From Leptolyngbyaceae cyanobacterium M33_DOE_097 (lineage in GTDB: Bacteria > Cyanobacteriota > Cyanobacteriia > Leptolyngbyales > Leptolyngbyaceae): a DNA stretch of 64,000 bases. The stretch is from contig DVDV01000232.1 of NCBI GenBank assembly GCA_015296075.1, positions 1 through 64,000 on the forward strand, written 5' to 3'. Below, in pieces: positions 13-23,755 of the stretch (position 1 is its first letter; every line of letters starts with the position of its first letter). The notes below the pieces were generated by a model that saw nothing but the letters and a program-made list of their open reading frames with translations, did no database searches and was not told the origin of the DNA. Both the position numbers and the translations under genes were made by a program.

Positions 13-651
13 TTACCATTTTGAGGGATTATCAGGATGCAACTGGTCTTGCTGCCATGCCAGCGGGTTGCAATCAATATAGTGGCGAATCCGTTGCAAT
101 GATGCTTCACTGCGAATGATGTGTTCGTAGTAGTTGCGCTGCCAAACAGAGGAAGCAGGAGTATCACGAAGCAAATTGATCTGTTTGGTAGAGATCGTCT
201 TAAATGCACCCATTAAGCACCCTAAAGATTTAGGGCTTGTTCCATTTTCGGGAGGGTCGTTGTGTGACGTAGGGGCGGTTCGCGACGGGGGGATGTTTTG
301 TGGTGCCAGGTCATTGCGTGACGTAGGGGCGGTTCGCGTTCGCGTAGCGTCTCCATCGGAGACAACGCCCCTACCGGGGATATCGGTCAACACCAAAATG
401 CCATGAACATGATTTGGCATAATCACCCATGCATCCCAATAAACATGGGGATATTGGGTTTCCAACCAAACGTGGGTATCTGCAACCACATTCCCAAATT
501 CATTGGTCTGCATCACACCATCCTCGATCGCCCCAAACAGACATTGCCGTTGATGAGTGCAGAGGGTAATGAAATACGCACCAGGAGATGAATAATCATA
601 TCCTTTCAACCGAAGCGATCGTCTATGGTGTTTCTCCGGATTGTATTTCAA
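13..651 (-). CDS. REP-associated (RAYT) IS200-like Y1 transposase with in-frame insert
   Basis: This 212-residue protein has the layout of TnpA-REP/RAYT proteins, single-strand HUH nucleases that act on REP hairpins. The metal-binding HUH pair is H81/H83 (context MPNHVHG), and the likely catalytic tyrosine is Y174 or Y175 in NYYEHIIR. The N-terminal YFITLCTHQR block is typical of the family. Residues about 91-137 form a low-complexity linker that normal family members lack at this length. It is encoded by a REP-like palindrome and a 54-bp repeated segment, so RTAPTS-R/H-ND occurs twice. The reading frame stays open across the insert. Whether the enzyme is still active cannot be told from sequence. 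No terminal inverted repeats of a complete IS were seen, which fits a domesticated RAYT. Confidence 0.85.
   Translation of the reverse strand: MKYNPEKHHRRSLRLKGYDYSSPGAYFITLCTHQRQCLFGAIEDGVMQTNEFGNVVADTHVWLETQYPHVYWDAWVIMPNHVHGILVLTDIPGRGVVSDGDATRTRTAPTSRNDLAPQNIPPSRTAPTSHNDPPENGTSPKSLGCLMGAFKTISTKQINLLRDTPASSVWQRNYYEHIIRSEASLQRIRHYIDCNPLAWQQDQLHPDNPSKW
264..374. repeat. REP-like GTAG palindrome and its partial upstream copy inside the RAYT gene
   Basis: GTAGGGGCG (323-331) pairs with CGCCCCTAC (366-374), and GTCTCC/GGAGAC (349-363) forms an inner hairpin with a 3-nt loop, giving a 52-bp hairpin element. A 21-bp stretch ending in its left arm (318-338) is repeated exactly at 264-284, 54 bp upstream, so the period is a whole number of codons. 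The same element, reading from the 374 end, recurs at 23652-23696. RAYT-type enzymes are known to recognise a GTAG-type tetranucleotide 5' of REP hairpins, and both arms here start with GTAG. Confidence 0.8.
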
Positions 652-763: not shown

Positions 764-1783
764 TCAACTCACTGCACTGTAGGGAAGATAGAGAACGTGG
801 GGCGGGTTTGCTTTACCTATTGGTTTTTGCTCTCCTAATTTACGCTTTTGATTTTCAAGCCAAATGACAACTTCAGTATTATCTGGGTAATACTGTTGAA
901 CAAAGCTGATAAAGTTGTCGATTGTACATTCCTTGTTAGTGCCACCCATATACTCCGAGTGGAATTGATCATGAACCTCACAAGAAATAGTAATTAAGTT
1001 ATCGATTGAGTCTGCAAGGATAGGGTACTTATTACATGAGTACAAATGATGGGCTGCCATCCTAGCTGGCTCAACATAGTTACCTTCACGCTTTGTAACT
1101 TGGCAAATACTTTTATCTCTTCTTTTTGTACTCTTCTTAGCAGATTCAATCTGTTTTTCTCGCTGTTTAAGCTGTGAAACAATATCATCAATTTGCGGTT
1201 TTATTACCTCGCCTACATCCTTACACTCTGCTTTCCGGTTTTTCTTCGTTAACCGCTCTTCAAAAGCTTTGGAGAGCTTGATAATACCAGCAAGTGAAAA
1301 GTACAGTCCTTGATCTGGGAAATCCTCAAAATCTTGCCCTTTTATCAAAGGGTAATCTGCTTTTTGTGTATGTTCAGCCATTTTTGACAGGTAGTCAGAA
1401 CGAGTCCCAAAGATAGCAACAGCGTCTGATCTTGAAATCCAAAATTGATCATTTCTCTTAATTAAGGATGAGCAGTTTTCAAGAATCTTTCTTCTAACAA
1501 AGCTCTTACGGATTTTCTCATTAGTATGAAAAATAAACTCCTTGATTCTGTTCCAAAACCCCTTATATTTAGTGGTTTCTAAATATCGAGCAATCGTATA
1601 CGCTCCAGATTCTGTATATTCTCTTAGACCGCTACCACTAACAACCCGATAATCTTTTCCTTCTGCCAATTCCCATTCATCATCTGGGATAGAGTCAAAA
1701 AACTTCTCGACCTGTATTAATTCCTCGCCACTAATGTTGAGAGTTTTGATCAACTCTCTACTAGGAATATAAATCTTTGCCAT
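764..1783 (-). CDS. HNH-nuclease-like protein with duplicated N-terminal module
   Basis: This 339-residue soluble protein is not a family I can name. The C-terminal part (about 225-280) has an HNH-like arrangement: C227, H245/H246 in AAHHLYS, N262 in DSIDNLITI and H271 with H275 in EVHDQFH, which is consistent with a beta-beta-alpha-metal nuclease. Residues 196-225 are lysine-rich and probably helical. The first 180 residues appear to hold two related modules: EGKDYRVV...SGAYTIARYLE (41-69) and KGQDFEDF...YFSLAGIIKLSKAFE (148-175). This pattern recalls phage antirepressor or BRO-type DNA-binding modules, but that is inference. The ATG lies 2 nt after the stop of the upstream J-domain gene, so the two are co-transcribed. 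The gene is more AT-rich than the core genes and has no HIP1 site. Confidence 0.7.
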   Translation of the reverse strand: MAKIYIPSRELIKTLNISGEELIQVEKFFDSIPDDEWELAEGKDYRVVSGSGLREYTESGAYTIARYLETTKYKGFWNRIKEFIFHTNEKIRKSFVRRKILENCSSLIKRNDQFWISRSDAVAIFGTRSDYLSKMAEHTQKADYPLIKGQDFEDFPDQGLYFSLAGIIKLSKAFEERLTKKNRKAECKDVGEVIKPQIDDIVSQLKQREKQIESAKKSTKRRDKSICQVTKREGNYVEPARMAAHHLYSCNKYPILADSIDNLITISCEVHDQFHSEYMGGTNKECTIDNFISFVQQYYPDNTEVVIWLENQKRKLGEQKPIGKANPPHVLYLPYSAVS

Positions 1784-23610: not shown

Positions 23611-23755
23611 GTTATACCAATTCTTCAAAACTGGGCTACAGATGATTATCTGTAGGGGCGTTGTCTCCGATGGAAGCGCTACGCGAACGCGAATCGCCGC
23701 TACGAGGATCTATGCTACGAGGATCTATAAATGGGATTTAGAGAATTGGTATTAC
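23611..23755. mobile_element. MITE-like element with an internal REP hairpin
   Basis: A 145-bp element bounded by inverted repeats GTTATACCAATTCTT (23611-23625) and GAGAATTGGTATTAC (23741-23755), 13 of 15 positions pairing. It contains, from 23652, the same GTAGGGGCGTTGTCTCCGAT sequence found reversed in the RAYT gene, followed by two tandem copies of the 15-mer GCTACGAGGATCTAT (23699-23713 and 23714-23728). No transposase is encoded; the short open frame across it is the translated repeat only. Confidence 0.7.

What the first reader, a model, noticed from the sequence alone, without database searches (positions are those of the whole stretch)
264..374. REP-like hairpin built in frame into its own RAYT transposase gene
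A 52-bp GTAG-starting palindrome plus a 54-bp period repeat encodes residues 91-137 of the transposase without breaking the frame. The same palindrome occurs at 23652. It is a self-targeting record: the enzyme's likely substrate has entered the enzyme's gene at a tolerated linker.
Basis: partly seen in the sequence, partly recalled or inferred. Interest (0 to 1): 0.65.

Follow-up and report, generated by a model that had tools for sequence, protein, structure and literature searches.

The report
Transposase gene carrying its own REP
A cyanobacterial transposase-like gene carries, in frame in a floppy loop of its protein, a copy of the DNA hairpin that such enzymes act on; this is a known habit of this enzyme family, and here the hairpin is a form found only in this genome, at a place where related genes in other phyla carry a matching one.

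Summary
A complete RAYT/TnpAREP gene (13-651, minus strand) contains a 52-nt GTAG...CTAC hairpin (323-374) in frame, plus a half-copy from a 54-bp-spaced, 30-nt duplication. It lies in a predicted unstructured loop between the HuH and Tyr motifs. The element recurs 22-40 times in the genome, including at 23652, and was found in none of 145 other cyanobacterial genomes.

The phenomenon is already published: Quentin et al. [quoted passage not shown]

What I add. (1) Of 134 related genes, 61 have a double-foot palindrome in this linker (0.2 expected from shuffles) and 107 have at least a half-site. (2) The REP core follows the enzyme clade across phyla: the window's clade (98% support) has the same core class in five phyla. 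(3) In some genomes the linker copy is the only perfect REP. (4) Arms change in pairs.

So "the substrate recently entered the gene" needs correcting. The clade already carried a REP there; in this genome it is the local 52-nt form, so turnover in place fits better than a first insertion. Ordinary in kind; useful as a label of the likely cognate substrate.

The parts
13..651 (-). RAYT / TnpAREP-like HuH (Y1) transposase gene, complete ORF, 212 aa (TTG start)
   Evidence: NF047646 E 8.9e-18; AlphaFold model matches 4er8 E 2.4e-6
403..411 (-). HuH motif codons (H81-V82-H83)
   Evidence: invariant columns H81 and H83 in 60 homologues
121..144 (-). Tyrosine motif WQRNYYEH (residues 170-177)
   Evidence: W170, Q171 invariant; Y174, Y175 at least 90% conserved
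226..387 (-). Variable, predicted unstructured linker (residues 89-142) between last core strand and next helix
   Evidence: pLDDT block means 40-66 over residues 91-140 and no secondary structure over 89-142
323..374 (-). 52-nt double-foot REP GTAGGGGCG..CGCCCCTAC, in frame, encodes residues 93-110
309..338 (-). First unit of 30-nt direct repeat (3' half of REP plus GTCACGCAATGACC)
255..284 (-). Second unit of 30-nt direct repeat, 54 bp away; includes half-REP CGCGAACCGCCCCTAC (269-284)
23652..23703 (+). Dispersed copy of the 52-nt REP, degenerate 3' arm (92% identical)
23612..23754 (.). MITE-like inverted-repeat element (TATACCAATTCT...AGAATTGGTATTA) that encloses the 23652 REP
   Evidence: same flanks around many other copies in the genome

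Best explanation
The gene is a TnpAREP/RAYT of the group Quentin et al. call subclass 2.4, and 323-374 is a REP of its likely cognate family held in the disordered linker between the HuH and Tyr halves. The REP is an old, gene-borne part of this RAYT clade, inherited and moved between phyla with the gene (inferred from the tree). Its exact sequence turns over in step with the dispersed REP population of the host, by RAYT-mediated REP replacement or gene conversion (inferred). In this genome it has become a 24-nt longer, genome-private 52-nt form, followed by an in-frame duplication of its 3' half. The frame survives because only inserts without the TAG of GTAG in frame and with a compatible length are kept, and because the loop tolerates length change.
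For: Shown: 61/134 linkers with a double-foot palindrome against 3 N-terminal and 5 C-terminal parts, 0 in codon shuffles and 0.2 in dinucleotide shuffles. Half-site density 8.0/kb in the linker, 0.85 N part, 1.36 C part, 2.0 in 400-bp flanks, 0.23 farther out. GTAG phase 0 (43) or 1 (18), never the phase that puts TAG in frame. RAYT tree with the linker excised: the window clade (8 rows, 98*) has core CGGTTCG in 7 and CGATTCG in 1, and no other row has CGGTTCG; 67 label changes against at least 84 in 200 shuffles. Identical linker/flank core in 29/55 genes against a mean of 1.8, maximum 7 in 1000 shuffles. The 52-nt form has 22 matches here and none in 145 other cyanobacteria. L087 and L173 hold a REP (half-site or full 28-nt palindrome) at the same linker position. 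Loop disorder. Same kind reported in 2018.
Against: No empty allele in a close relative: the one same-genus genome held (G002) has no RAYT hit. Turnover by replacement rather than repeated fresh insertion is not shown directly. The homologue sample came from two REP-bearing queries, which may inflate the REP fraction (12/53 palindromes in the cyanobacterial set, 47/77 in the other). In G143, G153 and G014 the linker core differs from the host's dispersed majority, so coupling to the host population is not universal. The window gene has no flanking REP in the flank held.
Confidence: 0.72

Rival explanations
1. Fresh self-insertion: the host's dispersed 52-nt REP was inserted by the enzyme (or another) into a REP-free linker of this gene, and selection kept the in-frame event.
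For: The 52-nt form is private to this genome and the gene copy is a near-perfect match to the dispersed copies. REP-free, short linkers exist in other homologues.
Against: Nearest relatives by protein tree carry a 28-nt REP or half-REP of the same core class, in the same phase and place, in the linker. It would need an exact loss and regain at the same spot.
Confidence: 0.15
2. The linker REP is kept by selection as a working cis element: a gene-borne copy that seeds REPs in a new host after transfer, or an autoregulatory hairpin bound by the protein on its own gene or mRNA.
For: Arms change in pairs: 52 both-sides cells against 13 in shuffles, 99.4% of cells paired. In G028, G213 and G045 the linker holds the only perfect 28-nt REP of the genome. 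Strong predicted RNA hairpin.
Against: About 46 of the 107 linkers with a half-site keep no palindrome, and 27 linkers have no half-site, so loss is common. The pair test was run only on sequences selected as palindromes, and paired change also follows from replacement by another palindromic REP.
Confidence: 0.1
3. Protein-level coincidence: repeated glycine/proline-rich linker codons happen to look palindromic.
For: None beyond the low complexity of the linker.
Against: 0 of 134 in codon-order shuffles, 0.2 in dinucleotide shuffles. The same DNA is dispersed in non-coding sites of the genome.
Confidence: 0.01

Closest known systems
Subclass 2.4 TnpAREP with REP inserted in its own gene (Quentin et al. 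2018, PMC6006769)
   Same: In-frame REP between HuH and Y motifs, double-foot GTAG...CTAC, abundant in Cyanobacteria, loop peripheral in the model
   Different: The window's REP is a genome-private 52-nt form with an extra internal hairpin and a half-REP duplication. The paper passages read here do not describe the clade-to-core coupling of the linker copy or genomes where the linker copy is the only perfect one
GTAG REPs inside genes and RAYT-linked REPtrons (Di Nocera et al. 2013, PMC3733652)
   Same: GTAG palindromes, cyanobacterial families, REPs in frame inside ORFs, REPs nested in longer palindromes
   Different: Their intragenic examples in the passages read are DNA-repair and other genes, not the RAYT itself
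Rickettsia palindromic elements (RPE)
   Same: Palindromic repeats in frame in protein genes at tolerated sites
   Different: Not tied to a transposase gene carrying its own cognate repeat (general knowledge, and the mention in PMC3733652)
E. coli TnpAREP (PDB 4er8)
   Same: HuH/Tyr fold (Foldseek rank 1, E 2.4e-6); acts on GTAG-footed hairpins (PMC8266576, PMC6006769)
   Different: 15% identity in the aligned region; 4er8 is 165 residues against 212 here

Membership tests
RAYT / TnpAREP | HuH motif plus C-terminal tyrosine motif on a TnpA-IS200-like core | tested here: met
   H81, H83 invariant, Y174/Y175 at least 90% conserved; 4er8 and IS200/IS605-type TnpA are the 28 matches with E <= 0.001
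RAYT / TnpAREP | Passes curated family model | tested here: inconclusive
   NF047646 64.6 bits, cut-off 80; no Pfam hit; two separate stretches match
RAYT / TnpAREP | GTAG-footed REPs of a likely cognate family in the genome | tested here: met
   About 40 copies of the 52-nt element and 4 of the 28-nt GTTTCGCGAAAC form
RAYT / TnpAREP | REPs flanking the gene (REPtron) | tested here: not met
   No GT[AG]GGGG[CT] half-site in the held flanks outside the ORF; the contig ends 12 bp beyond the stop, so one flank is missing
RAYT / TnpAREP | Binds and cleaves its REP | not testable with these tools
   Needs purified protein
Subclass 2.4 of Quentin et al. | REP insertion in the gene between HuH and Y, reading frame kept | tested here: met
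Subclass 2.4 of Quentin et al. | Double-foot REP | tested here: met
   GTAG at 374 and CTAC at 323 on the coding strand
Subclass 2.4 of Quentin et al. | Placement in the authors' subclass tree | not tested

The most novel reading that the evidence does not exclude
Subclass 2.4-like RAYTs are self-contained units that carry their cognate REP inside the coding sequence as a maintained cis element: it travels between phyla with the enzyme, seeds a new REP population in the new host, and labels each enzyme with its substrate.
Probability: 0.25. Interest if true: 0.65.

Novelty: new member of a known kind. Interest (0 to 1): 0.4.

Why it matters
If the gene-borne REP is the cognate substrate, the substrate of any such enzyme could be read from its own gene, which gives ready-made enzyme-substrate pairs for binding and cleavage tests. 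It would also offer an answer to how REP families arrive in new genomes. The in-frame insertion itself has been known since 2018.

Tried and rejected
Pfam scan: no family. PDB sequence search: nothing; fold search was needed. The order search returned the same 42 genomes as the family search. Considered and rejected: chance palindrome; shared linker from unrelated DNA; REP inserted in many genes of this genome (of the 30 copies inspected only the RAYT copy lies in a long, identified ORF; four others lie in open frames of 121-155 aa that I take to be spurious). The co-occurrence of RAYT and the REP pattern (29/47 against 22/339 genomes, counted by hand; Fisher test) is strong but not corrected for host relatedness, so it is not used as a main argument. 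Literature searches for 'within the RAYT', REPIN co-evolution and small dispersed repeats gave nothing beyond the papers cited.

Full report
Observation. The window opens with a complete minus-strand ORF, 13-651, 212 aa. On its coding strand, 374 down to 323 reads GTAGGGGCGTTGTCTCCGATGGAGACGCTACGCGAACGCGAACCGCCCCTAC. The outer arms pair over 9 bp, and an internal hairpin around GTCTCC-GAT-GGAGAC lies between. It folds better than every one of 200 dinucleotide shuffles as DNA and as RNA. It is read as GRGVVSDGDATRTRTAPT, residues 93-110, with no stop. The 54-bp period is real but modest: 309-338 and 255-284 are 30-nt direct repeats, 93% identical, made of the last 16 nt of the REP plus 14 nt, and in frame because 54 is 18 codons.

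The element in the genome. BLAST of 250-390 against the own genome gives 40 matches including itself; the others share nearly the same edges, are mostly 45-57 nt long and 83-98% identical to the gene copy. A 39-nt pattern with up to 3 mismatches gives 22 copies here and none in 145 other cyanobacterial genomes, so this form looks private to the genome. Of 30 copies inspected, the RAYT copy is the only one inside a long, identified ORF; four others lie in open frames of 121-155 aa that I take to be spurious. Most dispersed copies, the 23652 one included, sit inside one of two longer MITE-like elements, and many of these have a degraded GTAA foot; the gene copy has both feet intact. At 40 copies in 6.96 Mb about 0.01 would fall in a RAYT ORF by chance.

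The enzyme. NCBIfam names it REP-associated tyrosine transposase (E 8.9e-18, below the curated cut-off). HuH (H81, H83) and the Tyr motif are conserved in an alignment of 60. The AlphaFold model (pLDDT 82) has an ordered core and an unstructured stretch, residues 89-142. Its best PDB match is 4er8, TnpAREP bound to a REP hairpin, followed by IS200/IS605 transposases. The REP therefore lies in a disordered linker between the two catalytic halves.

Prior knowledge. Quentin et al. 2018 (PMC6006769) state that subclass 2.4 TnpAREP, abundant in Cyanobacteria, have REPs inserted within the genes, generally between HuH and Y, without disrupting the frame, and describe the double-foot REP. Di Nocera et al. 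2013 (PMC3733652) describe intragenic REPs in other genes and REPs nested in longer palindromes in cyanobacteria.

Homologues. I collected 134 RAYT genes from the own genome, its family, 386 genomes of the phylum and a scan of genome contigs. 61 linkers contain a GT[AG]G...C[CT]AC palindrome with stem score 8 or more, against 3 N-terminal and 5 C-terminal parts, 0 after codon shuffling and 0.2 after dinucleotide shuffling. 107 have at least a half-site, with a linker density of 8.0 per kb against 0.23 in far flanks. Linkers without a half-site are shorter (median 51 against 63 residues HuH to Y; minimum 36). The GTAG is read only in phases 0 and 1; the third would put TAG in frame. In-frame tandem repeats occur in 26 linkers and 2 N-terminal parts, so the window's half-REP duplication is a common kind of growth. 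The sample is biased by two REP-bearing queries; split by source, palindromes are 12/53 in cyanobacterial genomes and 47/77 in genome contigs.

Enzyme and REP go together. On a tree built without the linker, the core of the linker REP changes 67 times against at least 84 in 200 label shuffles. The window sits in an 8-row clade (98*) from Cyanobacteria, Nitrospirota, Myxococcota, Pseudomonadota and Hydrogenedentota. Seven rows have core CGGTTCG, one has CGATTCG, and no other row of the 107 has CGGTTCG. L087 and L173 carry RGGSRTAPT at the place where the window has RGVVSDGDATRTRTAPT; L173 has the full 28-nt palindrome and L087 one half-site. The window's element thus looks like the same linker REP made 24 nt longer. 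REPs within 400 bp outside the ORF share the identical core with the linker in 29 of 55 genes (shuffled mean 1.8, maximum 7). Support inside the tree is uneven (55 of 104 inner branches open); the window clade is among the well supported.

Is the linker copy just the host's REP? Sometimes it is: G414 has many dispersed copies with the same core, plus one on each side of the gene. Sometimes it is not: G143 and G153 have AACGGCCGTT in the linker and AATGGCCATT elsewhere, G014 has CACGGCCGTG in the linker and mainly TTTGGCCAAA elsewhere, and in G028, G213 and G045 the linker holds the only perfect 28-nt REP. So the copy can travel with the gene. Among 27 distinct 28-nt linker REPs, 99.4% of cells pair and 52 cells changed on both sides against 13 in shuffles. 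These were selected as palindromes, so this shows paired change, not selection; replacement by another REP explains it as well.

Conclusion. Shown: the in-frame REP, its family, its place in a predicted disordered loop, its recurrence in homologues, and its tie to enzyme clade. Inferred: old residence in this clade with turnover to the local 52-nt form. Open: whether the gene-borne copy does anything, and whether the protein acts on it.

Noticed in passing
window 23612-23754; L015-L043 (own-genome copies): Most dispersed 52-nt REPs are nested in one of two longer inverted-repeat (MITE-like) elements, TATACCAATTCT...AGAATTGGTAT or TGCTGAATG...CAATCAGCAACGCC, and many have degraded GTAA feet. 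They may spread as passengers of another transposase.
   Followed up: partly
L011 1-123 (own genome, contig C143 start): A 98% identical C-terminal piece of the window RAYT begins another contig, so a second near-identical copy, or an assembly break in it, is likely.
   Followed up: no
L004 1501-1528 / L008 (contig C152): A paralogous RAYT in the same genome carries a different, perfect 28-nt REP (AACGGCCGTT core) in its linker, the only such perfect copy listed for this genome.
   Followed up: yes
L009 1501-2052 (contig C185): A further RAYT paralogue has a TGA near its start and a TAA near its end within the matched stretch; probably a decaying copy.
   Followed up: no
L119, L073, L207, L165: RAYT linkers with long in-frame tandem arrays, several derived from REP pieces (GLHSGG, HELPL, MRTMPT, VGAHGDAPDRGIKSN).
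   Followed up: partly
window 764-1783 (-): Gene next to the RAYT encodes a protein with an HNH-like AHHLYSCNKYP...HDQFH stretch; not studied.
   Followed up: no
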